From assembly GCA_003116975.1 (NCBI GenBank), contig BGKB01000187.1:1-64000 (forward strand): a stretch of DNA of 64,000 bases, read 5' to 3'. Position numbers and translations under genes: made by a program. The notes under the pieces were generated by a model that saw only the letters and a list, made by a program, of their open reading frames with translations, was not told the origin of the DNA and did not search any database. Below are positions 3,030 through 48,817 of this stretch, piece by piece (positions within the stretch are counted from its first letter, which is position 1; each line of letters begins with the position of its first letter). The stretch is from Aurantiochytrium sp. KH105 (lineage: Eukaryota; Sar; Bigyra; Thraustochytrida; Thraustochytriidae).

Positions 3030-3970
3030 TCCTCTCCCCCTTTCCAGAAAGCCACCTGCAAGTGATACAAGATGCTGGCCCGCGTCAGCCACCATGGCCA
3101 GCCAACTCGCGGCCACTGACAAGGGGGGAGGTGGTCTTGTGGTGGCTGGCTGGTCGTGGCCACGAGCCTCAAACTCTCGGGGAACGAGCTGGCCACGCCA
3201 AAGGAAAAAGTAAAGGTAAAAGAAAAGGTATACTCACAGTCACAGTCCCAGTCAGACCTCTGCAAAGAGAAGACAAGAATAGCACCAGCAGAGAACGAGA
3301 GAAAGGAAAAGGGGGGCGAACGGAGAATGGAGGAGAGTGCAGTGCAGTGTGGCCGCCGCCGATCGCCTCCTGCCTCTCGCACGAACGTTTGCCCCGGGTT
3401 CCGCACGCGGTCCCAAAGTGCGAGACGCACGCTGGGTATCTGCGCAACCCCTTGCACGCGGCCCGAAAGGGGCACACGGCACATCGTCTGGTGCGGTCTC
3501 GAGCCTCGCGGTCGCTCCCTCTCTGTTTCATACCCCCGCACGCTGGAATGTCCCGCGTGTCCAGGTGTGCGCCTTATGTTTTTACTAACGTATTCCATAG
3601 ATTGGTACCAGTACCCAGCAGACTTTAGGGGTAAAGTAGAATAGACTGCGAAGGCCTGCAATGTAGTGGATGTTTCGAGACTCTCAGCGTGCCCCCTACT
3701 GTTCTCCTCGTCATCGCGCGAGCGCGTCGAGGCGCGGTCGTAGGCGCCAGCTAGTGCAAACTCTAGTCCGGAGCACGCGTGCAGCAGCAGCGAGCGAGTC
3801 TTCGTGTTCGCTTGCACAGACCCGAAACTAGCGAGCCTCGAGGCGCGGCCACTCTCCGTGCGCGAGTCCGGCGACAACCACGGCCACGGTGACGGCAGGC
3901 GCCTGCCCCGGTGCAACGCGGCGGCAGCGGCGCGCGAGGTGCGGCGTGGCGTGGCGTGGCGTGGCGCCGT

Positions 3971-4001: not shown

Positions 4002-4377
4002 GCGAGGTTTGAAAGTTTGAGAATTCGAGAGCGAGCCCGCGCGATACCGTACAGGACGCGGCACGGTATCAAGCGCTGTCCGCGCGCGCGAGAAAGGCAA
4101 ACCAGAGCGAGAAAAGACGCACGTGGCGCAGCCAGCCCAGCCCGGTTGGCTGGGTAGGCTGCTTGAGCGTGAGCGGGGGAGGGGGCGAGCGACACGCAGG
4201 AAGGGAGAGGGGGGAGTGAAAGCTCGAGGTTGTGCGAAAGGGAAGGGTGGTGAAGAACGAGCATCTTTCTGCCCCACTTTGCAATAACAATACGTAGGCA
4301 GGTTGTGCCTACGTGCGTCAAAGAAATCAGCGACCAGCGAGCAAGAACGCGCACAGAGCAAAAGCGAGCAAAAGCGA

Positions 4378-4450
4378 GCAGAGCGAAGCAGAGCGAAGCA
4401 GAGCAGTACAGTGTAGTGCAGAGCAGAGCAGAGCAGAGCAGAGCAGAGCA
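4378..4450. repeat. AGAGC pentanucleotide repeat in the giant gene's leader
   Basis: Perfect and imperfect AGAGC/GCAGA units run up to about 45 bp before the ATG at 4498. Similar units recur before the ATG at 47200 and upstream of the gene at 61063. Confidence 0.9.
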
Positions 4451-4497
4451 AGTAAGAAGAGAAGCACTTGTCGAAGGATAAGCAAGTCCGAGCCAAG

Positions 4498-7400
4498 ATG
4501 CCCGGCGAACAAGAGGTGCAAGACCTCGAGGACGACTATGACAACTTCGCCCAGGACGTGCTCTGGGAGGACCCGGGCGAGGCCGCCAATTCCGAGGATG
4601 AAGATTCCGACATGGAGGAACGCTTCCGTCGTGTTCCGGGACTTCGCACAAAGCATGGACGTAAAAAGACCAAGGAACCCAAGACCCTGGCCGCTACCTT
4701 CGATTTTAGAAGGGGAAGGACCCGGTGGCCCGAAGGCGTCGAGCTCATCGACGAAAAGAAAGCCGAAGAACTCATCAAAAAGGCTGAGCAACGCGCTGCT
4801 GATACCAAGACTACTACTGGTTCAGCCGTCGCCGATGATCCCTGGGCCGCGCAAAGCATGTACCCCTCGCTGAGCGGGAATCCCGGCGGTTCTTCCTCGC
4901 TCGCCGCGCACGATCATGGAAGCAGCACCGGCGCTGGATACTCTGGTGCCGGACCTGGAGCTGGCATGGCTCCGGGTGACTCCCAACAAGCTGCTTTGCA
5001 GGGGCCCGTGGGACCGTGGGGAGGCCAGGTCGCACCCACCTCGGCCCCTATGACATCCTATTCCTCTGCGGCAGCTGCATCGTCAGCCGCTGGAGGAAGC
5101 GCAGGCGCTACTGCAAATGCCGCCAAGGCAAGCGCACCGCTTGACGACAAGAACTTGGATGACCCGCTGTTCAATCTTGCGCCAAATGCAGCCAAGTTCG
5201 AAACCCTCAAGGATCATAGCACCGCGCTTGTCCTTCTCCCCGGCCAAAGACTCAAGCTCGATCTGGAGGAACTTACGACTTACGGTGCGAGCTCCAAAGC
5301 GCGCGCACGTACCCGGAAAGAGGTAAAGCGCCGCGAGGCGATTCACAAACGCGGCTTGAAAAAGCAGGCTGAAATGGCGCGCGCCGCAGCCGCCTCTCTC
5401 GCCGGCGGCAATATCGGGGCCGTCGACGCTGCCGTGGCCAAAGCCGAGGCGGAGGTGGACAATTATTATGCCAAGCACGGTCGCGACGACGACGACGACG
5501 ACGACGATGACAAGAAAGGAGGCTTTCTCGACAGCGACGATGAGGATTTCGAAGTCGATGCCGACGACCTCTTTGACGATGATGATCTTGACGATGACGA
5601 CAGCGATGGCGCCTTGGGGCGCGGCCGGTCGCGCGGTCGCACGGATGGCCTCGGTGGGGGTCGGGACTCGAGCCCTGGCGGTGATTCACTTGTCATGGTG
5701 GGCGGCGGCGGCGGCGTGCGCTGGAGTGATGATGTCGCCACGGGAACTGCCGCTGGAACCAGCTATGGCTTTGGCATGGGAACCGGGACCGGGACCGGCG
5801 CGAGCGGAGGTTTCGGCGACAGTTTTGGCGGCTATGGAGGCTTTGGCGGCTATGGAGGCTTTGAGTCCATGTACAAGACGTACGTGAACCAGTATACCAT
5901 CACGATGGACGTCAAATTCGAGGTTGATCCGCCTCGCAACGGACTGTCTCTCTTTCAGACGCGTCTGGTCCACGTCGAGGAGAATCAGCGCACGGGCAAG
6001 AAGCGAATCAAGCAGTCGGATGGCGAATGCATGGTGAATAGCGAAGGCGGGGTAGGCATTCTTGGATCCTTTGGCGATGTGACCAAGGCAAAGGTGAAAA
6101 AGGGCAAGTGGCACCGCATCGTGATCGCCGTCGGCTGCAGCGAAGAAGGCAAGGGCCAAATTCGAACGTGGGTCGACTCGGTCCCCTGTGCGACCATTAA
6201 CCACGAAGAAGTAGTTCGTGACGGCCGCTTTGCCATTGATCCGGATGCTCTCTATCTCTTTTCCTCGAAGAACGCTAGCATGATGCCCGGCCAGATTTCC
6301 GTGCGGCACATCCGCATCGAGTCCGTCTTTTCCGACAACAGAATGGTGCGCGAGCAACGCGCGCGCGACAAGCTCATTTCCATGTACGAAGAAGAGCGAA
6401 AGGATGAAATCACGGAGCAGCGCAAGGAACTCAGCTTGGCTGTACTTTTCCCCAAAGCGCGGCCTATTTGGGTCGCGCCGGCTCTCACGGGTACCTTTGG
6501 TGACGCTTACATTGAAGGCACAATGCTCGAGGCATCGAGCCTTCTCAGCTGGTCACACACGGTGCTCAATTACACGCTCTCGCGCGCCTTGCACGAGATG
6601 GGGCCTTTTCTCGGCGCACTGTCGAGCCTTGAACGAGGATTTGTCAGCGATGCTGCCTATATCTTCTCGCGGAGCGGCGTAATGATGCGACAAATGATGA
6701 AGCTCTTGCGTCATCGTAACAAGACCCAGCTCATGGCTTTTCTCCGCAAGCTGCGCTCTGTGCTGGGCGACCTCGAAGTCGGGGATACCATTCTGCTGCC
6801 CGTTCTCGTGGAAACAAACGAGATTGTCATTGTCATGACGCGCGTCGATGATCAGCGCTTTCGCTTTGTCATCGTCAACACGGACCCGCTCAGCGGCCTT
6901 CGGTACCATGCGGTGTCCCCTGTGGCAGGCCCGCCCAAGCTCAAGTATCGCACCTGCATGGTCCTCAACAATGTGCCCAAGAAGAACGCTCTCGACAACG
7001 TTTTTTGGATGGCCGTTTACAATTTGAGTGTCCACAACCACAAGCGCGACACGGAGCGTTTCTACGACATCCTCTTGCCCTTTCTTACGGGAAAGCCACT
7101 CGAAACATCTTTGGTGGAGGCCGAAATGGAGGCTGCACACGGCAAGAGCGACGGCGTCGGTGCCGGTGCCTATCGTTCACCGCAGCGATCGCAGACAGCG
7201 TATGTGCGCTGTCTTCTCGAGGCTCTTCACTTTGTGCTGCGGGAAAAGGGGCTCAACGAGCTCCGTGCCAAGCTTGTCACGCTCGCACTGCGCGCTCAGT
7301 TTGTGAAGATGATCTCTAACGACATGGACCATATGCATCCTTCCGAGAATGGCGTCCGTGTTTGTCGCATGGCGTGCTCGCAGCTTGCGTACACCACGGT

Positions 7401-10400
7401 CAAGCTCGCAGACCGTCTTCGCGCCGAGGCCCAAAATGCCGACGACGCACGTCCAGAGGATGAGGCCGACATTAAAGAAGAAGAAGAGGAAGAAGAAGAA
7501 AACGCCAAAGAGGGCGCGGACATTCCAAAGAGTCCCAAGCCGGCTGGTGCCGCTTCTTCTTCTGACCCAGCGTCCTCGACGCCGGGCATGCAAAAGCGCC
7601 TTGCGAAGCGAAGGCTTCGTGCCGAAGCTTGCCGCCAAATCATGCTCGAGGAGTGCAAGCGACTTGCCTTTGACGTGCTGGACAAGGTCAAAGCCTGTGA
7701 GGAGGAATCTGTGGAGCTTCCTGCCATTCTTGAGCTAAGCAAGACACTTTTCGAGACGCCCAAGGCCTCGGGAGGCGCTCTCGCTCTGTCTGGGCCCGAG
7801 ATGTCTTCTCCTGTTCTCAGCGAGGGCAATGAGGAAGTCCGTGCCGCCGCCGAGGCGAACCCGGAGACGGCCCGGCATGCCCCGCAAGCCTTGCCTCGCA
7901 TTGGTGCCGATGACGAGAACGCGATCACACTAAAAGTCAAGCACACCTTGCCGCGTCGCGACCGCCTTCCGTTCGAGTTTGTCGTGGACCGCACGGGCCT
8001 TGTTTCGCAGCTCTTTGCCCTCGTAGAGGACAAGTCCGGTGTACCCGCCAGCAAGCAGCGACTCATTTTCATGGGCAAGATTCTCGACTCGACCAAGCTG
8101 CTCTCCGACTACAAGCTCAACACATCGGGCAAGGTCATTCATCTCGCTGTGCAAAAGGTCGTAGGCAAGGAAGGTGGTTCAGACGCCGGCGCGCAAAGCA
8201 AGGCCAAGCTCCGGAGTGGCACAAGCTCTGGCACTGCTCTCACGGCAGAAGGCGAATCGGAGGAAGTTGCGCGCGAGCGCGTCCGGCAGAACGTCCAATT
8301 TTGTGACATGCCTGTCATGTCCGCAGTCATGAACATTCCGAATCCAGGGCAAGCAGCAGCTTTGAAAAAGTATGTGGCCGTGGACTTTTTGCAGCTCCCC
8401 GAAAAAATCTTGAATCGGGCCGAGGCCGTAGACACGCTTCGCATGACGGACAAGCTCTGCACGCTCATGGACAATCAGAACCACTGCATTAAAAACGACA
8501 AGCTGCTTATCCTCAACTTGATCCAGTATGTCGTCACGCAGCTCATTCCACTTCCCGCACCGCGCGAAGTCACGCAGGACCCCGTCACACGCCTTCGTTC
8601 TGGGCGCGCGTACCGCCGACAGAAGCGTCGCCAACGTGCTCGCGACGAGCTTGCCGCCGAAGCGGCAGCTAAACAAGAGGCCGAAGAAGATCTTGAGGCC
8701 GACGGCGCCGCCGCGGCGGCGGCTGCTCGGGAAGAAGAAGAGGAAGATTCAGATTGGAATGAGGCTTCCAACTCGAGCGGATACTCTGACGAAGAGTGGG
8801 ATTCTGATCTCGAGGAGTACGTTCGTCGGCACCGCGGTGGAAGAAATGGGGGCGGAAAGGACGGGGAAGGCGAAGACGACGATGCGGAGGTCCGGGCCAA
8901 AGATGATAGTTCCGAAGACGAGGATGGTGAGGCCGGCATGGATGACGAGCTGCTTGACGCCACGAATATTGATGCGGAGATCGCCAAGAAGATGGGCATC
9001 TCAAGCATGCACGAAGCTGATCTGGCTAGAGTCAAGCAATTCTTGGAGGAGATGCCCACTACGCGCAAGCAAGCCATTGCTGAAATCGAGAGCCACGGAA
9101 ATTCGGACGCCGACGAGCTCACTGTGGACTTCCTCGACGACGAGCGCTTCCAGCCGAGCCTCGGCCAGCGCGTTCGCGTCCGCTTTCAGGGCGAGTATGG
9201 CATTTGGTACAACGGTACGGTGTCACGCCTCAATGACGATGGTTCCTTCTTTATCGTCTATGATGACGGCGATACCGAGGACGAGGTGCCGCGCTCGGCG
9301 GTTCGAAGCATCTTTGCTCCGCGCTTGCATCGTACCAAGGAAGAGCGTATCCGTGCAACTAACCGTCTCCATAATCGCATGGAGGCTTCTTTGGAGGCTC
9401 TCGTGGCGACCTTGGAAGCCAAGGGCGAGGGCAAGGATGCATTGGAAAAGGAAAGTGCAGGAACCGATGCAGGTGCTGCCGGAGCAAACGGCAAGTCAAC
9501 CTCGGAGGAGGAGCCGCAGCGGCCCGATCTTGACAATGGGCGACGCGCAGAAGCAGAGGCGACCGCTCGTGCGTGTATTTGGGATGAGGAGCCAATTGAT
9601 TACGCGTTGCAGGTCGAGATCATGCTCGTCTTGCAGCGTTTGATGGAGCATTTTGCCGCGGCAGCTTTCTCGCTGCAGCAGTCCCGTCCTCTTGACGCAG
9701 TTTGCGTAGTTGTACCCGGATGTATTGCAGCCATTGCCGACGCCATCATGCGACAGGTCGCCTTTGACACGCCCTCGGAAGCCTGCACACATCTTTTGGG
9801 TCAAACGCGCAGTGGCCGACAGCTGGGCATTCCCGGATTTGGATTGAGTGTGTCGACATTTGCAGACCAAACGGAGACGCTCGAGATTCATACGCCTGAG
9901 CTGAGCCTTGCGAGGACCTCTGTGCTCGACTACTTTGAAAGTCCCGCGCAACGTCGACTCTTTAAGATTTTCACCTGGGAGTCCGCACCGACCGTGAAGC
10001 CAAACCCTTCGCTCGTCAAGTACCTCCGTAACATTTGCCGCGAGACGGCCGCAACGGAGGCGAGTATGCCGCACACACTGCTTCTGGACCGACATCCCAA
10101 GTCTTCGCGCTTGCTCAAAAACTACCCCGAGCTCGAGGCCTATCGTGATATTGCCTTTTACTGGAAGCACTTTTTGAATCCAGACATTACGGCCTTTGTC
10201 AACTACGGAGGTCGCGAGGGCCGCGATGTGGGCCGTCTCGACCGCATGATCGCCCAGCTCAACTGGAAGTGGAACGCAGACATCCTCGCGTACGAGGTTC
10301 GGGCATTTTCCAACCGCGTGCTCACGTGCCGCCCGTTCCCGGACATGAACTACGCTGGGGTGTCGTACGAAAAGGACCACCAGCCACCGAAACACCGTTT

Positions 10401-22400: not shown

Positions 22401-25400
22401 CAGCACGATTTGTCTTCGATGCAACAAGGACTGGGGCAACCATTCGGGCCACACATGTGGGCGCGGACAGGGAAGTCGCGGATCGTTTCCACCTGAAGAT
22501 TCCGAAGAGGTGTACCAGCTCGTGGACATGGTCACGGACCTTGTCGAAGGCGAGCGGACCTTGAAGGTTCCAGCCAAGCGCATCATCATTTTTGCTGCGC
22601 ACTGCAATATCCACGAGGAAGAGCGCATGGCTCTGTGGGAGCTTGGCGTCACAGTCGTGGACTCGACCGAGGATCTTGCCAAGGTTGTGGACGAGATCGA
22701 GGACTACGACCGAGGCTCGCGATCGAGGCGCGCTGCCACGGAAGACGGCGGTGAAGGGGGCCAAGGCGATGAAGGCGAGGAAGAGCGAAAGGCCGAGGAT
22801 GAGAACGAGGACGCGGAGCAGCAAACGTCTTTGTCAATCACTCAGGATGATGATGATGTTGTCTTTCTGCGCACGGTGTTGGGCCGCGGTCCGGATGGTC
22901 GAAAGATCGGCGGAAGAAGCACCGCCAAAGGCTCGACATTGACCGAGGACGACGAACCTGCTGGTGGCGAAAGCGAGACGCTGACGATCCCGCCTCCATT
23001 GCCTCTGGAACGCGTGTCGAGTTCGACATCCAAAGAGCTGCAGGTGCTGCGGCAGCGGCTCGAGGCGCTCGAGGTGGCCAAGGGCGAAGTCACTGAGGAT
23101 GACGAAGAGGAGCGCCAGAGGCTCCGAGAGCACATTAACTCCTCGCGCAACAAGCTACAGACCGAAATCGACGGCATGCGTACAGACACCAAAGTGGCTT
23201 TGCAGCGCATCCCCAAAGAGTTTCTGAGCGCCGAGGCCCTCGAGGTGCGCAAATCCGGCACTTTTCTCCAGGGACAATCGTACGAGATCCATTCACGGCG
23301 GCTGGGCACGCGACTGGTGCAGGCACTGCAATGGATCGATAAGGTTGCGCCTGAGCGGACAACAACAACCGCTGCGAAGACGGTGTCCGGGGAAACCAAG
23401 ACCGAGGGTGAGTCTTCCGACAGGACGATTGGCGATGAGGCCTTTGTGAGTCTGGTAGCGAACCTGCAGTCGCTGGAGCGGCAGAGCCTAGCAGCCAAAA
23501 TTGTAGCGCGGGTTTCCCCTCAACACAAGAAGCTGCTCAACCTAACTCGTGACTGGCTTCGCACGTTCTTGCCCCACTGTCTGGGCAAGATTAACCGCGT
23601 CTCCTTTGGTTTGCTAAATGACGATGACTGCAAGCGCGCACTCGAAGAGGACCCGCTCATGCCGCGTTCGCGTCTCAAGCTGGCCGTTCCATTTGTAGGC
23701 AAGGATGTGCCAAGCTCCTCGTCAGAGTTCGCCCATCCGGACATTACCATCGGATTGACGATTCTTGGGTATCGCTACAGCGGTCTCCGCGAGTCAGACT
23801 TTGAGACGGTCGTGGACGAGATGACCACGGAGTTTGCCCGCGAAATCGGACCTGCGCGCGAACGCAAATCGAGTCAGCGCTACGAGCAGTGGGTCTCCGA
23901 ATCTGGTGGAACACTGCGCGGAATTCGCGATCGCTCCGGCGCCGCAACGCCGGCAACCGGGGCGGCCTCTGGCATTGGTTTTGGGACCGGTGGAGCAACA
24001 TTTGGATCTGCATTTGCGGAGCCTCGTGGGGGTGGACCTGAAGCGACATCTGAGAAAGCGAGGGCAACAGCAACGGTTGCTGCCGCACGAGATCGCCTCG
24101 AGGCGGAAGAAAAGGAGGTGGTCCAGCTCAAATACCTTCAAAAGAGCAACCGCGAGCAGATGCAAAAGCTTTACAAGCTTTGGAAGTTCGAGCCGCTTGT
24201 AATCCACCACTACTTGAGCCACACGGTGCTTCCTGCGCACATGCGTTCGCAAAAGGTGAAGATCTCCGCCTCGGGCCAAGCCGTTGGCGGCGAAATGCTT
24301 TTCGGTCGTCGTGTCGGCTTCAGTGGAACCCCGAGTGACCTTCTTCCAAAAGAACTTGGGCGCTGCGACTACGAGACGGGAGACGACGGCAAGATGCTCA
24401 GTACAGTTTTGGATGGGGGCACGACGAGCTTTGAGTACATCAAGTCAAATTGGAATGTGGAGGATCTCCTCAAGGGTATTGCTCAAGCCGAGTCTCCGCG
24501 GTACCACGCGCTCATCGACACGGGCGCTCTTATCACGGGCTACTCGAACAAGCAAGTTGCGCGTGCTCTGCTGAACTTGGGTCTCTCATGGTGCGATGGC
24601 GTGGTATTCCTGGACGATGACGACAAGCAGCAGGTGCTTGTGCGCGCAACGGGTCGTGTGATCAGCGCCGACCAGTGCGGTGTGCCGCTCGAGCGTCGCT
24701 TTGCTTTTTATGACCAGATCCATACCACCGGTATGGATATCAAGCACGTTGTCAATGCGCGTGCGGTGATTACACTCGGTAAAGACATGGTCTTTCGCGA
24801 CTATGTGCAGGGCGCCTTTCGCATGCGTGGTATCGGCAAGGGTCAAACAATCTGCGCGTACATTATCCCCGAGGTCCAGGAGCTAATGAAGCGCGAGCTG
24901 CAAGCGGCTGGGGTCACAACCGGCACCTATTCGAGCACGGACGAAGACAAGACGCTGGTGGATATCGTGGCATGGCTCGTCATCAACTCGATGCGGTCCG
25001 AGCAGGTGCAGTGGAGCATGTTATGCATGCAGAACATTTCCAATGTGTATCGCAAGAACGCACTCAAGCAGCTCATGCGCAAACAGGCTGTGAAGCTGGA
25101 GTCTGCAGACGATTCGCGGCAAGCGCTCAATGTATTCCGAGAGAGCGTGGACTTTGACCTCGAAGGGAATGTCCCAGATCCACTTCCTTTTAGCAAACGA
25201 CTCGAGAACATGATCGAAGAGCACGACGACTTCATTCTCTCTGAAACAGAGCGCCAGATTGGTCGCAACGTCTTGCACGAGGTGAAGCAGTATTCGGGGA
25301 CCTCGCAAGAAACTTCGGAGCAAAAGCTGGAGTCTGAGCAAGAGCGCGAGCAGGAGCAGGAGCAAGAAAAGGAAGTCCGCGCCAAGCGTGACCAGCAAAT

Positions 25401-28400
25401 TGAGGTAGAAAAGTTCGTGGACCGCGAGTACTCGCGCGCCGATGAGCATCCACGATCTTGGCCGTTTCGGCTGCTTTCGCGCGACCCCGCGCGCATCAAG
25501 AATGCCGACGCCTTTGATCCCAAGGCGCGCGCAGCGGCACGCGCAGCTGCCGTGGATGAGGACTATCCTTTCTATCCGCTCTCAGACTTTAAGCTCCGCC
25601 ACCAGGAGCCGCTCGAGTTCCCGGACTTTATGTACTTTTCGCGCAACTACTTTAACCCGAACTGGAACGGTCTGCGGCGCGTGAAGAACGTGGTCATGGT
25701 GCTCGAATGGGCCCCTTCTGTGGCCAAGATCACGCCTCTTGGGCCCGAAGAAAGCGCTGCATTGCACCCCATTGAGGGGGAGGCGGAGCGCTCGCTGAAA
25801 AAGGCTTACGAGCTGTTGTCGGTTCGCACGGGCGAGTTGAGTGCTGAAGACGTCATCCAGGCCGTGCGTGCAGCCACGGACATTCGACTGTCCGAGGTCG
25901 AAGTCGCGGATGTGATGGCAGAGTTCGGGACGGGCCGCAGCACTCTGACGCTCGCGAATCTGCGCCGTCTGCTCACGCGCGGCCGTCTGCGCTCTGTGGA
26001 GCATGGGCGTAATTATGTCATTGTCTCGCTGGCAGAAGCCGAGACGATCCGTCGCATTCTTCATTTGCGTGCCGCGCAGGAGGATGTGCTCATCACAGGA
26101 AGCGACACGGAAATTGCGCTGCGATACACCCCTCTTTCGACGATGGGGTCCTCCGAAGCTGCGAAGCGAGCCGAGCTCGCCGGCGCAGACGGCGACGGAA
26201 GCAGCAGTCTCGATGGCCTCGACGAGGCGATGACGTTGACAGTTCCAGCGAGCGGGAATTCGAGCGGCAGGCTGGGCAGCGTCGGCGAGGCAAGCCCCAG
26301 CGATCCAGCTTCCGCCGCGGAAGCCGCTCAAGTAGAGTATGGCATGGTTCTGGACGCTTCGCGGCGATGGCGCGTGGCCGATGGCGTTGCATTTGACACG
26401 CTCGCGCCGAACTTTCAGGCCGCCATGGCTCACACATGCGCGCGCTTCCTTGACTGCAACATGCACTTTCGCTCTGTGGATCTCAACGTCTTGCTGTGCG
26501 CTTTGCAGCGCAATTCGGTACATGCTCGTGAGCTCTTCTTCCTGCAAACGATGGGATGCAAGCGACGCATGGATCGCAAGTGGAGCGAAACGCCGCTCGC
26601 CAAGATCTTCTCCGTCCCGGACGAGTGGTGCGCCTTCAAGCAGCGTGCCCAGGCGGTCTTTGTGCGGGAGTCAATTCGCAGCAAGCGGCTGACCGAGTGG
26701 GAGGCCTTTACGGCCTTTGACTCGGACGACAATGGCCTGCTTGGACCTGCAGAGTTTTATGGCGCACTGCGCTGGCTCGGGGTTCCCAACTTGACGCCCG
26801 ACGATGTGGTGGACATGTTTAGCGTTGCGGATCGCAATGGCGACGGGATGATCGACTACAAGGAGTACATTGTCTTTTTGGAAGGCGAGGAGGAGGCCGC
26901 AGGCATCGTCGAAGAAGATGAGGAGGAGCGCGAGCTGGTCCCACAGGTGGACGGAAGCCTGCCGCACGCAAAGCCTTTAGTTGAGCCTTACGGCGCCGAC
27001 GTGCTGCGCGAGGTGATGGTGAAGCGTGCTCGCGAAGAAATGCAGCGTCTGGAAGAAGAGCGTATCCGTCGCGAGGCTTATAACCGCGCCTTTGACATTA
27101 AAGTCTTTGAGGAGGAGCTCGAGGCCAGCAAGTCGCGCGAAGGAGGAGCCAACCCGCTCTTGCGGCCCTTGTCCTCTTCGACCAGCGATGGCGGTGAAGG
27201 GTCCCAAACCAAGGATGAGAACGCCATGCTCTGCGAGTACTCTTTTGTATCTAATGAGCGGCCGCTGCGCATGACAGCGTCGGGCCACGGGCGCTTTGTT
27301 CAGGAGCTCACACATGTCACCACCGAGCGTGCTTCGGATGCAATCACTGCAAACAAGCAGCGCTGCCGCTTTGGCCACGAGTTGCGGACGACGTGGTACT
27401 CTTGGCGGAAGTGCAGCACTTGCGGTGTCCGTAACAATGTGCGCTACGAGTGCTCAAACTACGAATGCAGCTATTATCTGTGCTCGCGCTGCCATGCGTC
27501 CGCGAGCGAGGAGAAGAAGCGCGCGCGAGAGGACCTTTCCAAGCAAACAACCTTTTTCAACTGCGCTGCAGGCGGCAGCGTCTCGCTGCAGGTTCCCACC
27601 GCTATCACGGAAAGCTCCCTCGTCTCTGAGGAGGAAAAGGAGACGAAGGAGAACGGGGAGACGACGACGACGAAGGATTCTGTGAAGGACACCACGACTG
27701 TTTCTCCTGGTCGTGCGTCGGGCCCTGCAAATTTCACGATCATGTTTGATGTGCGCATTGACAGTCTTCCTGCCAAGGGCGGCAAGCACGCGCTTGCCAA
27801 ATTTTCTGCTTCTGCCCCGCAAACGGGACGCCATCACAACCGGAAACGAAACAAGGCCAATGTCTTTATTGACGAGACCGGTAGGGTGACGAACGGAAGT
27901 GCTGCAATGCCAAAACTTGACCCCGTCACGCCCAAGGATTCCGAGGAGTCCGCCACCGGGACAACCGAGATTGCAAGGGACGAGAAAACGGAAGCGACGT
28001 CGACGCAGGCAACTACAGAAACGGCCACTACGCAGGAGGACGGCGCCGTCAAGCAGGACGAAGAGGAGGATGTCGCCAAGAGCAAAGACACAGTCAAGGA
28101 GGAAGACACAGTCAAGGATGCCGCTGTTGCAGCTGGCGAAGGACTCTCCGAGGGCGTTGCGGAGGCCTCTTCCAAGTCAAAGGATGACGACAGCGCTAAG
28201 GTTGTTGATTCATGCGCCACAGAATCATCAGGCAAGGATGAGGAAGCAGAGCCAGCAGACGACGTCAAAGATGGCGACACCGAAAAGGCAGAGAAGCAGG
28301 AGGACTCGGCTGTGGTTGAGAAGGAAGACGTGAAGAAGGGAAAGAAGCCGAAGAAAGCTCCGCGGAAAAAGGAGGAGCCAGCAAAGAGGAGGAAGAGGGC

Positions 28401-29523
28401 AACCAAGAAGAAGAAGAAGAAGCCAGAGTACAGCGATGACGATCACTCTGAGAACGAAGAGGACGATGATGACGAGGACTTGGACGCTCTGGATGACGAC
28501 GGCGATCAAGACGAGAAGAGCCAAAAGTCTGCCAAGGATGCAGAGCCGTGGCAAGGCGCTATGACGGGTGGCTCTTGGCACGTGGTGACAATTGTCGTGA
28601 ATGGAAGCGAGCGCTCGATGACGACCTACGTGGACGGCGTCAGCTCGTGCAAGTTCACAGACCTGAACACCGATGAACTGGAGCTCCAGCATCAGGTATC
28701 TCTGTTTGGCGGCGCGCAACAAAGAAGCATGCGCGGTGGCTCAGTTCGAAGGCTCGTGATCGCAAACCGCGCGCTGAACGAGGGCAAAGTCCGTGAGTTG
28801 TCGAAGGAGCTGCGCTCCAAGTCCGAGAAACGCATCTTGTGGTACCGCATTCAACCTGCGTCTAGAGAGGAGAAGAAGGTTATTTCAAACATGCGCAAGA
28901 CCGGGGTTTGTGTAAAGCTCGTCACGTCCGAGGAAGACGCCCTTGCGGCGCTCAAGTCCGAGTCTAACTTCAACAGCATCGTTACGCAACTGTGGGCCCC
29001 TGAAAAGGAGGACGAAGACGGCGTGATGCGTGTGCCGGGCTTTGACAAGGATGGTCTAGGCAAGCCACCAGGCTTGTCTTTTGCCGACCGGGTCCGTCAA
29101 GTCGACAAGAATGCGCCCATCTTTATGGATCTGACCAAGCCGCCGCAAAAGGCCAAGGAGTACATTGTCGGCGAGCTCATTAAAGCTCGATACCACGGTG
29201 GATCGTTTTACCCTGGACGTATCTCGCGCGTGCACGATGTGAGAATGGTCAAGGGCAAGCCGAAGCGAGTTTATGACATTGACTACGATGACGGTGATGA
29301 GGAGTCCGAGGTCGAGGACCACAACATCAAGCCACGGCGGCAAAAGGATCGCAAGGGAAGCCAGAAGACGGCCCAGTATCAGTGGAGAGACGAATGGAAC
29401 CGCGAGCTTCGCCGCAAGGCAATCAGCGTATATCAGAGCGGTGACCATGCCGAGGAGATGCTCTGCTTTGCCGTTTGTCTGCGAATCAAATCGACGTCTT
29501 CGCCGACGGACAATAAGCGCTAG
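4498..29523 (+). CDS. Giant 8,341-aa DUF3638/DUF3645 ATPase with UBL, thioredoxin, WWE, Tudor and LamG domains
   Basis: One uninterrupted frame of 25,026 bp starts at the first ATG. Domains in order, with approximate residues: acidic N-terminus; LamG/ConA-like fold 458-616; ubiquitin-like 1143-1220; Tudor-like 1551-1604; Tudor-like 2978-3030; thioredoxin-like 3717-3810 with WKASC in place of WCxxC; WWE-like 3944-4010; SAM-like 4190-4250; WWE 4630-4705; GFG repeats 4776-4805; thioredoxin 4989-5067 with an intact WCQPC (C5016, C5019); DUF3638 P-loop core about 5439-5690 with Walker A GAGKTT (5482-5487) and Walker B LLDEVD (D5665, E5666); Cys/His cluster 5948-5987; DUF3645 6393-6437; motor C-terminal half about 6590-6790 with FRMRGIGKGQ (R6775, R6777); EF-hands 7408-7419 and 7445-7456; ZZ-like zinc motif 7623-7670; second LamG-like fold 7742-8100, split by an acidic/Lys insert; Tudor-like 8222-8281. 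DUF3638 function is not established. Ubiquitin or ADP-ribose signalling is inferred from the accessory domains only. Confidence 0.9.
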   Translation: MPGEQEVQDLEDDYDNFAQDVLWEDPGEAANSEDEDSDMEERFRRVPGLRTKHGRKKTKEPKTLAATFDFRRGRTRWPEGVELIDEKKAEELIKKAEQRAADTKTTTGSAVADDPWAAQSMYPSLSGNPGGSSSLAAHDHGSSTGAGYSGAGPGAGMAPGDSQQAALQGPVGPWGGQVAPTSAPMTSYSSAAAASSAAGGSAGATANAAKASAPLDDKNLDDPLFNLAPNAAKFETLKDHSTALVLLPGQRLKLDLEELTTYGASSKARARTRKEVKRREAIHKRGLKKQAEMARAAAASLAGGNIGAVDAAVAKAEAEVDNYYAKHGRDDDDDDDDDKKGGFLDSDDEDFEVDADDLFDDDDLDDDDSDGALGRGRSRGRTDGLGGGRDSSPGGDSLVMVGGGGGVRWSDDVATGTAAGTSYGFGMGTGTGTGASGGFGDSFGGYGGFGGYGGFESMYKTYVNQYTITMDVKFEVDPPRNGLSLFQTRLVHVEENQRTGKKRIKQSDGECMVNSEGGVGILGSFGDVTKAKVKKGKWHRIVIAVGCSEEGKGQIRTWVDSVPCATINHEEVVRDGRFAIDPDALYLFSSKNASMMPGQISVRHIRIESVFSDNRMVREQRARDKLISMYEEERKDEITEQRKELSLAVLFPKARPIWVAPALTGTFGDAYIEGTMLEASSLLSWSHTVLNYTLSRALHEMGPFLGALSSLERGFVSDAAYIFSRSGVMMRQMMKLLRHRNKTQLMAFLRKLRSVLGDLEVGDTILLPVLVETNEIVIVMTRVDDQRFRFVIVNTDPLSGLRYHAVSPVAGPPKLKYRTCMVLNNVPKKNALDNVFWMAVYNLSVHNHKRDTERFYDILLPFLTGKPLETSLVEAEMEAAHGKSDGVGAGAYRSPQRSQTAYVRCLLEALHFVLREKGLNELRAKLVTLALRAQFVKMISNDMDHMHPSENGVRVCRMACSQLAYTTVKLADRLRAEAQNADDARPEDEADIKEEEEEEEENAKEGADIPKSPKPAGAASSSDPASSTPGMQKRLAKRRLRAEACRQIMLEECKRLAFDVLDKVKACEEESVELPAILELSKTLFETPKASGGALALSGPEMSSPVLSEGNEEVRAAAEANPETARHAPQALPRIGADDENAITLKVKHTLPRRDRLPFEFVVDRTGLVSQLFALVEDKSGVPASKQRLIFMGKILDSTKLLSDYKLNTSGKVIHLAVQKVVGKEGGSDAGAQSKAKLRSGTSSGTALTAEGESEEVARERVRQNVQFCDMPVMSAVMNIPNPGQAAALKKYVAVDFLQLPEKILNRAEAVDTLRMTDKLCTLMDNQNHCIKNDKLLILNLIQYVVTQLIPLPAPREVTQDPVTRLRSGRAYRRQKRRQRARDELAAEAAAKQEAEEDLEADGAAAAAAAREEEEEDSDWNEASNSSGYSDEEWDSDLEEYVRRHRGGRNGGGKDGEGEDDDAEVRAKDDSSEDEDGEAGMDDELLDATNIDAEIAKKMGISSMHEADLARVKQFLEEMPTTRKQAIAEIESHGNSDADELTVDFLDDERFQPSLGQRVRVRFQGEYGIWYNGTVSRLNDDGSFFIVYDDGDTEDEVPRSAVRSIFAPRLHRTKEERIRATNRLHNRMEASLEALVATLEAKGEGKDALEKESAGTDAGAAGANGKSTSEEEPQRPDLDNGRRAEAEATARACIWDEEPIDYALQVEIMLVLQRLMEHFAAAAFSLQQSRPLDAVCVVVPGCIAAIADAIMRQVAFDTPSEACTHLLGQTRSGRQLGIPGFGLSVSTFADQTETLEIHTPELSLARTSVLDYFESPAQRRLFKIFTWESAPTVKPNPSLVKYLRNICRETAATEASMPHTLLLDRHPKSSRLLKNYPELEAYRDIAFYWKHFLNPDITAFVNYGGREGRDVGRLDRMIAQLNWKWNADILAYEVRAFSNRVLTCRPFPDMNYAGVSYEKDHQPPKHRFASTAAPSFYLTPPSVRTEDDIIYRPSLPAFEETVEHHAAPTDLEDRGTDNASKRRQRDEGETATKRKGRNGTDAGTTTTKTQVLGQHDSELLLSYLTVPYIRLPLVLTFFASDDRLHKLQSERLRDILDSVTFEPGRYLSLGLRGVEPVLVPTPYKELLATPYGALINDMCSSPESVSRPATALIRDALALDTGSVCDIGAEDFNTSVLIILYTARLASRLDNYLSWLVRRARTTKANARRGGVLRDTTLTPECVDKLEQAMNEIRDMMLGPLSTLFRDYLQKLEDQTRKDPTDEDLIRRNSKLACDLHAHLLLMCRNVSVETMKTRVAQTLVGSFIYLTTRHTWNRPIREEGRLLIPEFELYEVLQVQRRTLVNWCRNLRQGQLDRVMQYSLEVSTSTSGSMGTTEEFLSSSNRWSRISGVRSVGRYAVASTRLAAGSSQGGATSGGDADGDADTSDEGSAAGGATDGNASSGGSGASPARLKLLREKSFNTSVEEISDQEMFGVEMDLQIGQMTLRSRHLSALVSEISNHPDMKDLFGNGTLQVSLLERAEHRDRYRLVGLQHDIEYWITPHDECPPLSDEWGRHYDPSELFPSESWIVSLFEPVRRQFFDGPMPPAMQFLMPECALPEDAEVAILMGLHPQMGGPFKLVYLFRRLRCVHVYECLSHGRQWYWSLHLTTDSRYCLRELQQSTEARMYPSPKWWTQGAGVAYPNGNTPCLMNRVQGGRYISHADRSVVIIREAGHAENLSGGKETYLPARLLFGLIPQCLLETHRFWLDESSSGSLQVPCNLFRGESDASGEDKATGAGGKSAPYDGEKGATNNNEAAWAAKEARRRRQDAREGYRSIQIMRGYPIEEDGEHVIVAEFQGVGSWLDIIRRKSGEAGAGSDTGIECVGGLPGVILRIMRYDKAAYSKRFLDKQAVALCLESLHLIKDQSNDPFLLKVKARREREQRKAANRLKKRATKRSKAADAAAALARSGEASHRGHGATEGASLLATEYDVNPSGHKYEVNVGDHVKYMVKKGRFIDVVVLAKNPDGTFDVQGVSKSLAGMVLERIEGHDLHKTRPHNVDRGEEIWHWQGLSDSEDEDWASGQSSDEDDDISDDDNAGAIDGSELRGARAVGGSLERNKGEKRRRRRAGRGDGDADDEMEEAKKREDEDGNKSRASLSFQQFFLLDLVLEAADRDVNLCMDLLYRLSAVPGVSFADVESVAVAVKAARADHLAFAIDKNGERVARSTEEIREFEAKSGELLAIETKVGEGGTVIPDLEDSCMVMLNLMYAPRGSRLFSIARTLSRVENLAHICAWTKKSNLAVWESELALRYGASMVPRLPLRGCVPVDLVEMPRLKLGFTVRKDFEGELRMYSMDHADLYVCNERDPSTTKMLRGIPHSLLMSNTQGDLQVLVPLVAPVRPQIKTQPFSTHLVLDRTNGSWNNRISQRYFLYPVHVSLSFLETRGLESALYLMLLRFLHRDYDEVFRLTDSVATDTHLGETASTIFDYFEYANDDWHPDAHACRLKISLVTVDSGILLPWDLTTQCARYAVKLPHVCVSCRLSLEEELEVLQTERLIVTSKKHALYVNTVHKDYIMTLVKNRQHALQAQFGLGAEETNGDDASKTAYGVTVEAGVLSTSETKDGGDSDEEALKNNKVLTVRAPCWVPPRGPSTSWPYYLDKTVFGETYQEVTSVKDPEHWATLRTGGVEQVVRARAMGDDEDEDDEAEGEAGNGGAGKSSGASAGINFPAVKAPPGGWLVVACFHVLWKASCVKAMQRIAEVAPVFPSCAFLSVRSDSLELSTLARDMKVSTFPTFIIMRGGEEVPDGRITAEDRITESLVSLLKEHVTKEDEAQFAEVLRAERRVMRERLQVTLDNFVPDADDADGKQRMSDKAGNKKRANKKRAGSSADNEKAGAEASDARKKAIEMQLAQLDSDNDESDYDDEDLQWTWDDETAQSMVIEKLGMRVVLRPEDLDASDATWEWSLEYDGRNWTKFADDQNKKIEMHYIAGDLYRGSSITIDRGDQGGRKVDIWDNNVQIASYELTGFRGRFLEPYREYLVIRRRGQRLPVPGEPEVSPERKMRDEQLRRDREVRDRMRAEALASRRGKDNEGIRGSMGFVPSSGVHEWTLVWSHEPSRNGEGDAVGICSENCEKMGPGPAPLLGNASDSSSLALYANGKLYHRGKLLAEVAPRLRASQAALKPLEDDAADAAEKKKLAREDLDEQMQELVAKLDENGLEEVADKFIINGYTTAESFNKLSEEDFKSFDIDDELLDKFTQFLAGEMEKESGSESGSDGEDDESEGDDPDEDVDADADEGKDDNKKEKSGKGVRQLRQRKGDNKILPVLAKAEGLLGTMARLTQGDAVNLWGSGSRVTCILDTDREDGLLRFQVDGTPLECEVRGIFSILGAHCVYPCISLAPYDIPQQDWKKSANERKAGMGATEDEDERADGESKNADAEDKKSKKTASKKSAKKNKSKSANGDGDDNDDANSQGDGERDEQEDEEEDEERKAIVKGLVGLTKLDETDFKKFGTSELQKLVKRAEELVKNQAVEPAVTLLAEDEVEDAAAADKAAAAAAAGTEDGAKSASKRRGKERKSSSSESSGSESGESSSSSEEEESDEGEESDESGSESGSESDEDSPGRGRKGGKDAKEDAAKKVPIKRCVWMYQEQNRWIRYDTDTAVTLERARRSGSKECEVTVGGERMLVRFRKMDNSSAQDVGEQNRSGSGGEKMRVRRQVIGKGISAGWETLSMTYDAPLSLYGNMALDVLDRVWSKGETMDGAKCGYGFLFLYGLLQGKLRCRIGGSSGFGGFGGFGGFGGFGGFGGFGDFGGWGGWGSTTSGKSDSHRFATLLAQLYTDRRFKSVPASIINVLIRNRQLCSRMPEFRDTRKNKRNKVFNGWADEREAQSPLAALFSQVVPSLQSLKRKRGAMQFPPAPPYPELDPAPKDYAVRRILTTTSDDEVATSRLSNRPELTDLSCSKRQLRPVSDHEVTALANAVGMRLAGEDVRFRIEAPLDIEDEDHFDRVMEALARENRLVVVQFHATWCQPCKAVSPTLLALSRRTPGVRFLRVDVDDCDMLSERYEIEKLPALAIFRGGATPEHRVSSIVGVSSDFSTTVETTIDGLLTDEEKAAIKRFRREQSRHRDETMPASNSARAQLESQGEGGDDEGEQESKDNHVPLEQENAKTHLGTDSEELRILAQSPLASLQKYLLWSTRGELGLSDVQDQIPFKVNKHEAAGNAVAKSMLGRMEEDVRSWSSTANAKASVGLRVLPRKVLAGFCSPGGDTAPIEAALAGISDLTKELRDLRGQDSAVVEKMLPLLTQAANHIELGRQSGPTRNEKIVHLLRREAGQETYIWIEFLFGALLSTRAEEDILRLNPYLSPENARTLLNIVTVVLLRANRMGHTNRCIGLSIRLRAKLQSLLALPPADRIARRNELVLSLSQMSESLGEALSDGRHFVDAKDLSFDPRFLLFEFTWNLLLREKQVEIVNMFMNNLAQDTSKVKQMIMGAGKTTVVAPLLALMLADGKSLVMSVVPKALLEMSRTRMRETFATIMQKRIYTLQFDRGTSVQRAMRRGLENAVRNRGIVVATPTTVKSIMLAYIETLNKITLAKEQGMSLRTAAAALGEGPVAAGKSDPDAAVNADPRSSPAEGDSKSALKTSTAATALPLDEQAAELQKILTIFRQGSILLDEVDLILHPLKSELNFPMGEKFDLDASQQGERWSLPTHMLDAIFFTERGKVSTFEQRGQALDILKRLSAIIDEGYKCRALQQLPHITLLNLTFYQNELRPILAEWAYLWLQKHHLHGIDHAEAIRYIVDGGESRSHARLFLEGFEENGTTSESMISGAAEAATARARKVHDLTEELYENEAALVEHISQSSDLLSQLQEHIARLTKRVEEAQYPRDDSLDNNIVVWLSVAFDSQQGAARAVHQGSVLSQCAKLEETGLTVKRCEDEDETVRRAKDLYGAKQLRCVIIGGDESRVGCSADCENHHSTICLRCNKDWGNHSGHTCGRGQGSRGSFPPEDSEEVYQLVDMVTDLVEGERTLKVPAKRIIIFAAHCNIHEEERMALWELGVTVVDSTEDLAKVVDEIEDYDRGSRSRRAATEDGGEGGQGDEGEEERKAEDENEDAEQQTSLSITQDDDDVVFLRTVLGRGPDGRKIGGRSTAKGSTLTEDDEPAGGESETLTIPPPLPLERVSSSTSKELQVLRQRLEALEVAKGEVTEDDEEERQRLREHINSSRNKLQTEIDGMRTDTKVALQRIPKEFLSAEALEVRKSGTFLQGQSYEIHSRRLGTRLVQALQWIDKVAPERTTTTAAKTVSGETKTEGESSDRTIGDEAFVSLVANLQSLERQSLAAKIVARVSPQHKKLLNLTRDWLRTFLPHCLGKINRVSFGLLNDDDCKRALEEDPLMPRSRLKLAVPFVGKDVPSSSSEFAHPDITIGLTILGYRYSGLRESDFETVVDEMTTEFAREIGPARERKSSQRYEQWVSESGGTLRGIRDRSGAATPATGAASGIGFGTGGATFGSAFAEPRGGGPEATSEKARATATVAAARDRLEAEEKEVVQLKYLQKSNREQMQKLYKLWKFEPLVIHHYLSHTVLPAHMRSQKVKISASGQAVGGEMLFGRRVGFSGTPSDLLPKELGRCDYETGDDGKMLSTVLDGGTTSFEYIKSNWNVEDLLKGIAQAESPRYHALIDTGALITGYSNKQVARALLNLGLSWCDGVVFLDDDDKQQVLVRATGRVISADQCGVPLERRFAFYDQIHTTGMDIKHVVNARAVITLGKDMVFRDYVQGAFRMRGIGKGQTICAYIIPEVQELMKRELQAAGVTTGTYSSTDEDKTLVDIVAWLVINSMRSEQVQWSMLCMQNISNVYRKNALKQLMRKQAVKLESADDSRQALNVFRESVDFDLEGNVPDPLPFSKRLENMIEEHDDFILSETERQIGRNVLHEVKQYSGTSQETSEQKLESEQEREQEQEQEKEVRAKRDQQIEVEKFVDREYSRADEHPRSWPFRLLSRDPARIKNADAFDPKARAAARAAAVDEDYPFYPLSDFKLRHQEPLEFPDFMYFSRNYFNPNWNGLRRVKNVVMVLEWAPSVAKITPLGPEESAALHPIEGEAERSLKKAYELLSVRTGELSAEDVIQAVRAATDIRLSEVEVADVMAEFGTGRSTLTLANLRRLLTRGRLRSVEHGRNYVIVSLAEAETIRRILHLRAAQEDVLITGSDTEIALRYTPLSTMGSSEAAKRAELAGADGDGSSSLDGLDEAMTLTVPASGNSSGRLGSVGEASPSDPASAAEAAQVEYGMVLDASRRWRVADGVAFDTLAPNFQAAMAHTCARFLDCNMHFRSVDLNVLLCALQRNSVHARELFFLQTMGCKRRMDRKWSETPLAKIFSVPDEWCAFKQRAQAVFVRESIRSKRLTEWEAFTAFDSDDNGLLGPAEFYGALRWLGVPNLTPDDVVDMFSVADRNGDGMIDYKEYIVFLEGEEEAAGIVEEDEEERELVPQVDGSLPHAKPLVEPYGADVLREVMVKRAREEMQRLEEERIRREAYNRAFDIKVFEEELEASKSREGGANPLLRPLSSSTSDGGEGSQTKDENAMLCEYSFVSNERPLRMTASGHGRFVQELTHVTTERASDAITANKQRCRFGHELRTTWYSWRKCSTCGVRNNVRYECSNYECSYYLCSRCHASASEEKKRAREDLSKQTTFFNCAAGGSVSLQVPTAITESSLVSEEEKETKENGETTTTKDSVKDTTTVSPGRASGPANFTIMFDVRIDSLPAKGGKHALAKFSASAPQTGRHHNRKRNKANVFIDETGRVTNGSAAMPKLDPVTPKDSEESATGTTEIARDEKTEATSTQATTETATTQEDGAVKQDEEEDVAKSKDTVKEEDTVKDAAVAAGEGLSEGVAEASSKSKDDDSAKVVDSCATESSGKDEEAEPADDVKDGDTEKAEKQEDSAVVEKEDVKKGKKPKKAPRKKEEPAKRRKRATKKKKKKPEYSDDDHSENEEDDDDEDLDALDDDGDQDEKSQKSAKDAEPWQGAMTGGSWHVVTIVVNGSERSMTTYVDGVSSCKFTDLNTDELELQHQVSLFGGAQQRSMRGGSVRRLVIANRALNEGKVRELSKELRSKSEKRILWYRIQPASREEKKVISNMRKTGVCVKLVTSEEDALAALKSESNFNSIVTQLWAPEKEDEDGVMRVPGFDKDGLGKPPGLSFADRVRQVDKNAPIFMDLTKPPQKAKEYIVGELIKARYHGGSFYPGRISRVHDVRMVKGKPKRVYDIDYDDGDEESEVEDHNIKPRRQKDRKGSQKTAQYQWRDEWNRELRRKAISVYQSGDHAEEMLCFAVCLRIKSTSSPTDNKR

Positions 29524-36665: not shown

Positions 36666-36953
36666 TAGCACCCTGCCCTCTCGCTAGACTTCCGTCGCTC
36701 ACTCTCTCGCTCGCTAGACTTCGTTGCCGCCGCCAGCTCGTCAGACCGTCGGCAAGAGGCGCAAAACAAATCAAAGCGTGAGCAACAAGAGCAAAGAGCA
36801 ATAGCTTGACCATCTCTTTGTTTACTCATTCCTTCACACGTTCACGCGCAATTCAAGTGGGCCATCGGTTGGGCGATCGGACTTTGACGAGTTCGTTGCT
36901 GCACAGAAAGTAGGAAACAGGTAGTGCAATCTCGAGCGCGTCCCGTCGAGACC

Positions 36954-48273: not shown

Positions 48274-48817
48274 CAGTCTGATTCCAAACGTAAATAATTC
48301 CAAACGTACGTAACACTGTGATTGATCATCTGCATTCTCGTTGTGTCAATCTCGGTTATAAAAGAGAACCTTGTTCAAGAGCAGGCACGAGCAAAACTGG
48401 AATGTCCATTGCGCCAAAGAGAAAATTGCTCCTCAACTACGAGACTCAACCCAAGTGCAAGTCGTCGAGGCCATGCAGCCACAAAGCTGAAGGTCAAAGG
48501 CCCGAAACGAAGTGCAGGTCCTCGTCCATGATGTACGAAGGAGAAAAAAAAAAAGATGAAGAACGCGAAAGAAAAGAACGACAGAATAATAAGTTGTCCT
48601 TGACAAGTTCTCCTCCCCTCTCACAGTTGATGTGCAGCGAGCGGCACGTGCAGCAGACCGCCAACTCGCAGCCTGATCGAGGCTACGAGCGAGTAAGCGA
48701 GCGGACAGTTGAGGGAGAGAGGGGAGGACGCACGCGAAGCGTACTCCGACTGCGACTGGCCTGGGGACAGCGGGCCGGCGTGCAAGCCCGGGGAAGTAAA
48801 CTTTGACGGTCGGGACT
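48274..48817. other. Intergenic region with candidate TATA element
   Basis: A direct repeat ATTCCAAACGTA occurs twice at about 48281-48308. A TATAAAAG sequence at about 48356-48363 is a possible promoter element for the downstream membrane-protein gene, although it lies about 455 bp before the ATG, so the leader would be long. No gene is seen. Confidence 0.35.

What the first reader, a model, noticed from the sequence alone, without database searches (positions are those of the whole stretch)
4498..29523. 8,341-residue multidomain protein built around a DUF3638/DUF3645 ATPase
The frame shows an intact P-loop (GAGKTT), DEVD Walker B, the DUF3645 signature and an FRMRGIGKGQ arginine motif like a helicase/SecA-type second half. 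It is fused to UBL, two thioredoxin folds, two WWE-like domains, SAM, Tudor, EF-hand, zinc and LamG-like parts. DUF3638 proteins are known as large proteins of unknown function. I know of no described protein with this combination. It could be a giant ATP-driven remodeller reading ubiquitin, ADP-ribose and methyl marks, but that role is inference.
Basis: partly seen in the sequence, partly recalled or inferred. Interest (0 to 1): 0.88.

Follow-up and report, generated by a model that had tools for sequence, protein, structure and literature searches.

The report
Giant SecA-like ATPase with tag-reading domains
A giant protist protein is built around an ATP-driven motor whose predicted shape resembles a bacterial protein-pushing machine but belongs to an almost unstudied family, with parts that may recognise ubiquitin and ADP-ribose tags; what it pulls on is not yet known.

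Summary
The 8,341-residue frame is real: open without a stop and present in the second haplotype (97.1% identity, dN/dS 0.144). Relatives of 7,997, 7,379 and 6,815 aa exist. UBL, one WWE, one thioredoxin, DUF3638, DUF3645 and EF-hands pass Pfam cut-offs. The second thioredoxin is supported by relatives; Tudor and LamG are weaker; SAM is not supported.

The architecture is not unique: it marks a 23-member group (support 1.0), and the genome has four more giant paralogues with other inserts.

Best reading: an ATP-driven remodeller or translocase of ubiquitin- or ADP-ribose-linked proteins. The substrate is inferred, not shown.

The parts
4498..29523 (+). single open frame, 8,341 aa, giant DUF3638/DUF3645 protein
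5905..6327 (+). N-terminal concanavalin/LamG-like part (residues 470-610)
   Evidence: sub-cutoff Polysacc_lyase 3.3e-5 at 529-571; aligned in 13 of 15 relatives (P0130 and P0135 start later); LamG name by eye
6460..7707 (+). cysteine-protease-like (clan CE-type) domain with helical cap, residues 655-1070; putative catalytic His and Cys columns read Glu775 and Thr900
7912..8163 (+). ubiquitin-like domain (residues 1139-1222)
8347..8583 (+). conserved block 1284-1362
   Evidence: shared with paralogues C68 and C99; in 15 of 15 relatives
9145..9327 (+). Tudor-like part 1 (residues 1550-1610)
   Evidence: PTM_DIR17_Tudor 5.6e-4, below cut-off; among 15 relatives conserved in P0121 and P0122 only; pairwise alignment also places it in paralogue C68 at 30% identity, without a Pfam hit there
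9502..12741 (+). conserved block 1669-2748, function unknown
   Evidence: match to paralogue C99 about 1e-65; 15 of 15 relatives
14164..15102 (+). conserved block 3223-3535, function unknown
   Evidence: paralogue C99 40.8% identity, 1e-59; 15 of 15 relatives
15610..15942 (+). thioredoxin-like domain 1; first Cys of the usual WCxxC replaced (WKASC, by eye)
   Evidence: 0.023 in window; two thioredoxin stretches in P0135, P0008, P0107, P0010
16225..16587 (+). WWE-like stretch a (residues 3910-4030)
   Evidence: by eye; aligned in 15 of 15 relatives; no Pfam hit
16735..17667 (+). split SPRY-like region (4080-4150 and 4310-4390) with a variable middle (the SAM call)
   Evidence: by eye; weak SPRY in P0008, 0.067; flanks aligned in 15 of 15, middle not
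18391..18609 (+). WWE domain (residues 4632-4704)
   Evidence: Pfam 6.4e-10; over cut-off in P0135, P0008, P0107, just under in P0010
19450..19752 (+). thioredoxin domain 2 with WCQPC active site
   Evidence: Pfam 2.9e-16; PDB thioredoxins 2.3e-14; motif
20815..21879 (+). DUF3638 = RecA1 of the SF2 motor (residues 5440-5794)
   Evidence: Pfam 7.2e-31; model of homologue P0064
20938..20958 (+). motif I (Walker A) MGAGKTT, residues 5481-5487
21490..21501 (+). motif II (Walker B) DEVD, residues 5665-5668
22285..22677 (+). insert with Cys/His zinc patch CxxxC..CxxC..HxxHxC (5960-5987), between motifs II and III
   Evidence: pattern in 28 of 149 fetched proteins, in none of the other four paralogues; in 19 of 23 members of the window's tree group and 0 of 97 others in the tree
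23662..23760 (+). DUF3645 signature (residues 6389-6421)
   Evidence: Pfam 4.1e-14
24205..24897 (+). RecA2 of the SF2 motor with motifs III FSGTP (24319-24333), V TGMDI (24727-24741), VI QGAFRMRGIGKGQ (24808-24846)
24943..25101 (+). long helix after RecA2 (P0064 1005-1057), position of SecA's helical scaffold
   Evidence: model, alignment, fold match
26698..26871 (+). EF-hand pair with two canonical 12-residue loops
   Evidence: Pfam 3.3e-9; loops
27355..27513 (+). C-terminal zinc-binding (ZZ/treble-clef-like) part
   Evidence: zf-tcix 0.69; ZZ 0.019 and C3HC4 0.089 in P0020, all below cut-off
28555..28812 (+). C-terminal LamG-like part
   Evidence: 5.0e-4; 4.2e-8 in P0020
29161..29343 (+). 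C-terminal Tudor-like part 2
   Evidence: 0.11; 2.7e-6 in P0020, below cut-off; conserved in P0121, P0122

Best explanation
The gene encodes one giant polypeptide whose engine is a superfamily-2 ATPase with SecA-like architecture. ATP binding and hydrolysis between two RecA domains (DUF3638 side and DUF3645/C-terminal side) would drive a large helical insertion, placed between motifs II and III as SecA's clamp domain is, against a long scaffold helix. This would move an extended chain stepwise. Around the motor sit modules that suggest protein substrates: UBL, WWE (ADP-ribose or ubiquitin-ligase context), a SPRY-like region, one intact and one degenerate thioredoxin, EF-hands and zinc modules, and a cysteine-protease-like platform at the N-terminus that lacks the expected catalytic residues. 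The most likely job is ATP-driven remodelling or unfolding of ubiquitin- or ADP-ribose-marked proteins or complexes, with calcium and thiol state as possible inputs. Shown here: the frame, its conservation, the SF2 motifs, the SecA-like predicted fold of a homologue, and the Pfam-level domains. Inferred: translocation, a polypeptide substrate, tag reading, and regulation.
Confidence: 0.42

Rival explanations
1. It is a nucleic-acid SF2 helicase or RNP remodeller that uses the tag-reading modules for recruitment, comparable in logic to giant antiviral helicases (HELZ2, ZNFX1: recalled).
Against: The best SecA outranks all of them by about 4.6 Z units and about 120 aligned residues; no nucleic-acid-binding domain passed a cut-off in the window.
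Confidence: 0.3
2. It is a giant ubiquitin-ligase-type scaffold in which the ATPase is regulatory, as in RNF213 (recalled).
For: UBL and WWE in the window; RING in P0129 at the place where the window has its UBL (placement by eye), and a C-terminal RING in P0009; UBA and RanBP zinc ribbon in paralogue C70.
Against: No RING, HECT or RBR domain in the window protein by Pfam at E up to 1 over tiles covering the whole protein; the motor is SF2, not AAA+.
Confidence: 0.15
3. It is a deubiquitinase, as the UniRef name 'ubiquitinyl hydrolase 1' of several relatives says.
For: Names in the listings; the N-terminal domain has a clan-CE-like cysteine-protease fold; one relative, P0137, keeps His/Asn/Cys-like residues.
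Against: His and Cys columns read Glu and Thr/Ser in 14 of 14 window-type proteins with the domain; no deubiquitinase Pfam domain at E up to 1.
Confidence: 0.04
4. Several adjacent genes or a read-through artefact, not one protein.
For: No transcript from this organism was available; the frame is extreme in length.
Against: Same frame in both haplotypes with purifying selection along it; relatives of 7,997, 7,379 and 6,815 aa with the same domain order.
Confidence: 0.02

Closest known systems
DUF3638/DUF3645 proteins (PF12340, PF12359) of stramenopiles, alveolates, fungi and others
   Same: Both Pfam domains over cut-off; P0121 and P0122 are full-length relatives; named sources include Ditylum, Peronospora, Chrysophaeum and Chromera and Aspergillus (PMC6237848, passage)
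   Different: The window's group adds thioredoxins, WWE, SPRY-like and a zinc insert; the four paralogues have no Pfam hit for thioredoxin, WWE or UBL and carry SH3, UBA, RanBP zinc ribbon or Vps62 instead
SecA preprotein translocase ATPase
   Different: No sequence-level similarity detected; the insertion is nearly all helical and larger; no membrane partner known
AnkH and LegA15/AnkD of Legionella (cysteine-protease-like domain)
   Different: No ankyrin Pfam hit in the window protein; putative His and Cys columns replaced in window-type proteins
RNF213 and giant antiviral helicases (HELZ2, ZNFX1)
   Same: Giant ATPase combined with ubiquitin-related modules (recalled)
   Different: RNF213's motor is AAA+ and it has a RING (recalled); the window has an SF2 motor and no RING hit

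Membership tests
DUF3638/DUF3645 family | PF12340 over cut-off | tested here: met
   107.7 bits against 31
DUF3638/DUF3645 family | PF12359 over cut-off | tested here: met
   52.1 bits against 25
SF2 helicase/translocase superfamily | motifs I, II, III, V, VI in order | tested here: met
   window and 103 of 115 well-covered fetched cores
SF2 helicase/translocase superfamily | two RecA-like domains | tested here: met
   predicted model of homologue P0064
SF2 helicase/translocase superfamily | sequence similarity to a named SF2 family | tested here: inconclusive
   ResIII in 13 of 21 homologues, below the curated cut-off where the score was shown; DEAD in 1 of 21 at 3.3e-4; none in the window itself
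SecA | overall SecA fold | tested here: met
SecA | insertion between motifs II and III and long helix after RecA2 | tested here: met
   secondary structure of model; the same insertion position also occurs in DinG/XPD (recalled)
SecA | sequence homology to SecA | tested here: inconclusive
   hhalign probability 1.5% at best with a narrow SecA alignment; PF07517 not among window hits
SecA | polypeptide translocation | not testable with these tools
   needs biochemistry
Clan CE cysteine protease (Ulp1/AnkH type) | fold | tested here: met
Clan CE cysteine protease (Ulp1/AnkH type) | catalytic His and Cys | tested here: not met
   Glu and Thr/Ser in 14 of 14 window-type proteins with the domain; columns assigned by motif and secondary structure
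Ubiquitinyl hydrolase | a deubiquitinase catalytic domain | tested here: not met
   none at E up to 1 in tiles covering the whole protein (HMMER's filters drop most matches above about 0.1)
RING/HECT/RBR ubiquitin ligase | catalytic ligase domain | tested here: not met
   none at E up to 1 in the window protein; RING present in relatives P0129 and P0009

The most novel reading that the evidence does not exclude
DUF3638/DUF3645 giants are a eukaryotic, non-AAA+ class of protein unfoldase or translocase: a SecA-like SF2 motor turned to ubiquitin- and ADP-ribose-marked proteins, carrying a dead protease platform and thioredoxins. Chlamydiota, many of which live inside protists (recalled), share and have multiplied the same motor.
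Probability: 0.3. Interest if true: 0.92.

Novelty: new variant of a known kind. Interest (0 to 1): 0.72.

Why it matters
Four held papers name this family; the passages I read in three of them give no mechanism (further searches). One of them calls the domain widely distributed among eukaryotic proteins (PMC12615304). It recurs as five giant genes in this genome and is over the Pfam cut-off in 47 of 116 Chlamydiota genomes searched. A SecA-like motor outside bacteria and plastids, tied to ubiquitin and ADP-ribose modules, would be a new type of eukaryotic protein-remodelling machine. It would also show that the database name 'ubiquitinyl hydrolase 1' misleads.

Tried and rejected
Deubiquitinase reading: set aside for this class because both putative catalytic columns are replaced and no deubiquitinase domain was found. 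A sub-cutoff Peptidase_M29 hit (0.0014) lies in a charged helical stretch and I take it as chance.

SAM domain: rejected as unsupported (0.25; at most 15% identity in 14 of 15 relatives; dN/dS of 0.49 in 4160-4300, from about 4 synonymous and 8 non-synonymous changes).

Uniqueness of the architecture: rejected.

Sequence link to SecA: tried with hhalign against eight chlamydial SecA sequences, no signal. Two of the ten SecA loci (L038, L047) gave no frame that passed my motif filter and were dropped. A profile search of PDB sequences with A1 gave ten weak matches (best 2.8e-4), which I take as chance from acidic or glutamine-rich stretches.

Other libraries: no NCBIfam or PADLOC hit for the core. 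No DUF3638 relative in the viral contigs. No tRNA or Rfam family in the window.

Paralogue check: pairwise alignment lays paralogue C12 over the WWE, SPRY and thioredoxin-2 stretches at 14-25% identity, and C68 and C99 over the UBL at 15-24%. Pfam finds no thioredoxin, WWE, UBL or SPRY in any of the four (a few residues at the joins between loci were left out, and C12 is cut by the contig end).

Tree: 120 sequences with over 80% core coverage out of the 156 with a core match; C4 and C102 left out as second haplotype copies; the chlamydial sequence was not retained, so the tree is unrooted. One inner node of the window's group has support 0.483.

Of the 15 giants compared, P0131, P0133 and P0135 stop inside the core, and P0130 and P0135 begin after the N-terminal domain.

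The N-terminal Foldseek rows shown are ubiquitin matches to the UBL, so the rest of that model was barely tested; the protease-like match rests on four VIA-align rows.

Papers. Passages only: PMC12615304, PMC5423893, PMC6237848, PMC3482391, PMC8195603, PMC6712400, PMC9757750. Search listing only: all others, PMC6627653 among them. Statements on RNF213, HELZ2, ZNFX1, XPD, SecA domain names and the life style of Chlamydiota are recalled.

Full report
Observation. The reading frame is real and coding along its length. ORF 4468..29523 (+) has no stop; the ATG at 4498 gives 8,341 residues. GC by codon position is even over nine segments of the frame. The assembly (76 Mb, 367 contigs) holds ten DUF3638 matches that fall into five near-equal pairs. 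Two of the pairs were checked by alignment: window/C4 97.1% and C99/C102 98.6% identical. The assembly therefore looks diploid. Against its second haplotype the window frame has dS 0.083, dN 0.012 and dN/dS 0.144 over 8,326 codons, with 41 gap columns and both frames open. Low ratios are in folded blocks, the six highest (0.37-0.85) in linkers, some from few changes. This argues for one long protein under selection. It does not exclude introns removed in frame, and no transcript from this organism was available.

Relatives. A search with the core returned 163 proteins at E up to 0.001 among the 7,979 best candidates scored, of which 120 were listed. A search with residues 640-5600 of the whole protein returned 29 among 4,370 candidates. 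P0121 (7,997 aa, 60% identity over 72%) and P0122 (7,379 aa) are full-length counterparts. P0123 (6,815 aa) is a frame called complete in a record named GEZN01000002.1, by its name a transcriptome assembly (inferred); P0001 and P0005, which hold the core, are MMETSP transcripts. In an unrooted tree of 120 core sequences the window falls in a 23-member group with support 1.0; its four paralogues lie outside. Among the 15 giants P0121-P0135, thioredoxin 1, the first WWE-like stretch, the SPRY-like flanks, WWE, thioredoxin 2 and the unknown blocks 1284-1362, 1669-2748, 3223-3535 and 4720-4904 align in 15 of 15. The UBL and both Tudor-like parts are clear only in P0121 and P0122; weak partial overlaps occur elsewhere, for example 17% over the UBL in P0129.

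The paralogues (frames of 3,231 aa cut at a contig end, 4,032, 4,833 and 5,258 aa) match the window colinearly at blocks 655-970, 1284-1362, 1669-2748, 3223-3535, 4720-4904, 5160-5794, 6328-7202 and 7316-7457, not every paralogue at every block; the cut one matches only near 2052-2103, 5440-5774 and 6333-6895. Pfam finds no thioredoxin, WWE or UBL in them. Instead C70 has a RanBP-type zinc ribbon (2.5e-6) and a UBA domain (8.4e-6), C99 has two SH3 stretches (2.7e-29), C68 has Vps62 over cut-off (5e-6; in C99 just under), and C70, C99 and C68 have EF-hand matches (in C70 below cut-off). The family looks like a fixed giant backbone with interchangeable inserts, several of them ubiquitin-linked.

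Accessory parts. Thioredoxin 2 keeps WCQPC and both EF-hand loops are canonical; thioredoxin 1 has WKASC (by eye). A Cys/His patch at 5960-5987 lies in the insert inside the motor. Its pattern occurs in 28 of 149 fetched proteins, and in the tree in 19 of 23 members of the window's group and 0 of 97 others. P0129 has a RING-H2 at the place where the window has its UBL, and P0009 has a C-terminal RING (precomputed domains; sequences; placement by eye). With the UBA and zinc ribbon of C70, these swaps are the best hint that the family works with ubiquitin.

Mechanism. Shown: sequence, conservation, SF2 motifs, predicted SecA-like fold of a homologue, named domains. Inferred: that ATP hydrolysis moves a chain through the core, that the chain is polypeptide, and that UBL/WWE modules bring in marked proteins. 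I put 0.42 on the protein-remodeller reading, 0.30 on a nucleic-acid or RNP remodeller, and 0.15 on a ligase scaffold with a regulatory ATPase.

Literature. Searches for DUF3638, DUF3645, DUF6606, PF12340, IPR022099, IPR022105 and spelled-out forms found four papers, with DUF3638 in passing in the three whose passages I read. PMC12615304 (one passage) states that its molecular mechanisms remain undefined. PMC3482391 (passages) mentions SecA-like helicase-related domains among effectors of the amoeba symbiont Amoebophilus; whether those are DUF3638 proteins I could not test. My searches for a SecA-like protein with ubiquitin and eukaryotes found no description of such a eukaryotic giant in the titles, abstract starts and passages seen, but most subscription papers are not held.

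Noticed in passing
L026-L037; genomes G001-G116: DUF3638 occurs over the Pfam cut-off in 47 of 116 genomes of the phylum of G001 (a Chlamydiae assembly), 61 of 116 at E up to 0.001, commonly in frames of about 2,300-4,700 aa, with up to 13 matches per genome (G053). The origin and direction of transfer between eukaryotes and these bacteria are open.
   Followed up: partly
G000 contigs C12/C166, C70/C274, C99/C102, C68/C21: Four further giant DUF3638 paralogues in the same genome, each on two contigs, with their own inserts: UBA and RanBP zinc ribbon (C70), two SH3 (C99), Vps62 (C68; just under cut-off in C99).
   Followed up: partly
genomes of about 1.0-1.3 Mb: Weak DUF3638 matches (E 4e-4 to 1e-3, below cut-off) in frames of 1,084-1,145 aa around the Walker A region; perhaps the SF2 protein Mfd. 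Not checked.
   Followed up: no
window 31154-33601 (-): 815-aa Sel1-repeat protein with a hydrophobic N-terminus, reminiscent of the ERAD factor SEL1L/Hrd3 (recalled), next to the giant gene.
   Followed up: no
window 36924-38831 (+): Ariadne-type RBR ubiquitin ligase (IBR, Ariadne, UBA_ARI1 domains).
   Followed up: no
window 34566-35705, 48803-49756, 56330-58222, 61063-62553 (+): YchF/OLA1-type GTPase, TauE/SafE exporter, NIPA-type magnesium transporter and a weak (sub-cutoff) PH-domain protein.
   Followed up: no
P0129, P0009; A4 members: Relatives carry RING fingers, and 1 of 21 core homologues each carries AZUL or a RanBP zinc ribbon, so ubiquitin-system modules recur around this motor.
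   Followed up: partly
P0137: A relative whose N-terminal protease-like domain keeps GNHA, CNTG and SCYF, i.e. a possible intact His/Asn/Cys set.
   Followed up: no
window residues 1669-2748 and 3223-3535 (9502-12741, 14164-15102): Two blocks found in paralogues C68, C99 and C70 (at most weakly in the cut C12) with no Pfam family over cut-off; the second is 36-41% identical to them. Fold unknown.
   Followed up: no
P0147 (7,637 aa): Another giant protein (EF-hand, kinase, WD40 and Tudor-like domains by precomputed Pfam) that matches only the window's first Tudor-like stretch.
   Followed up: no
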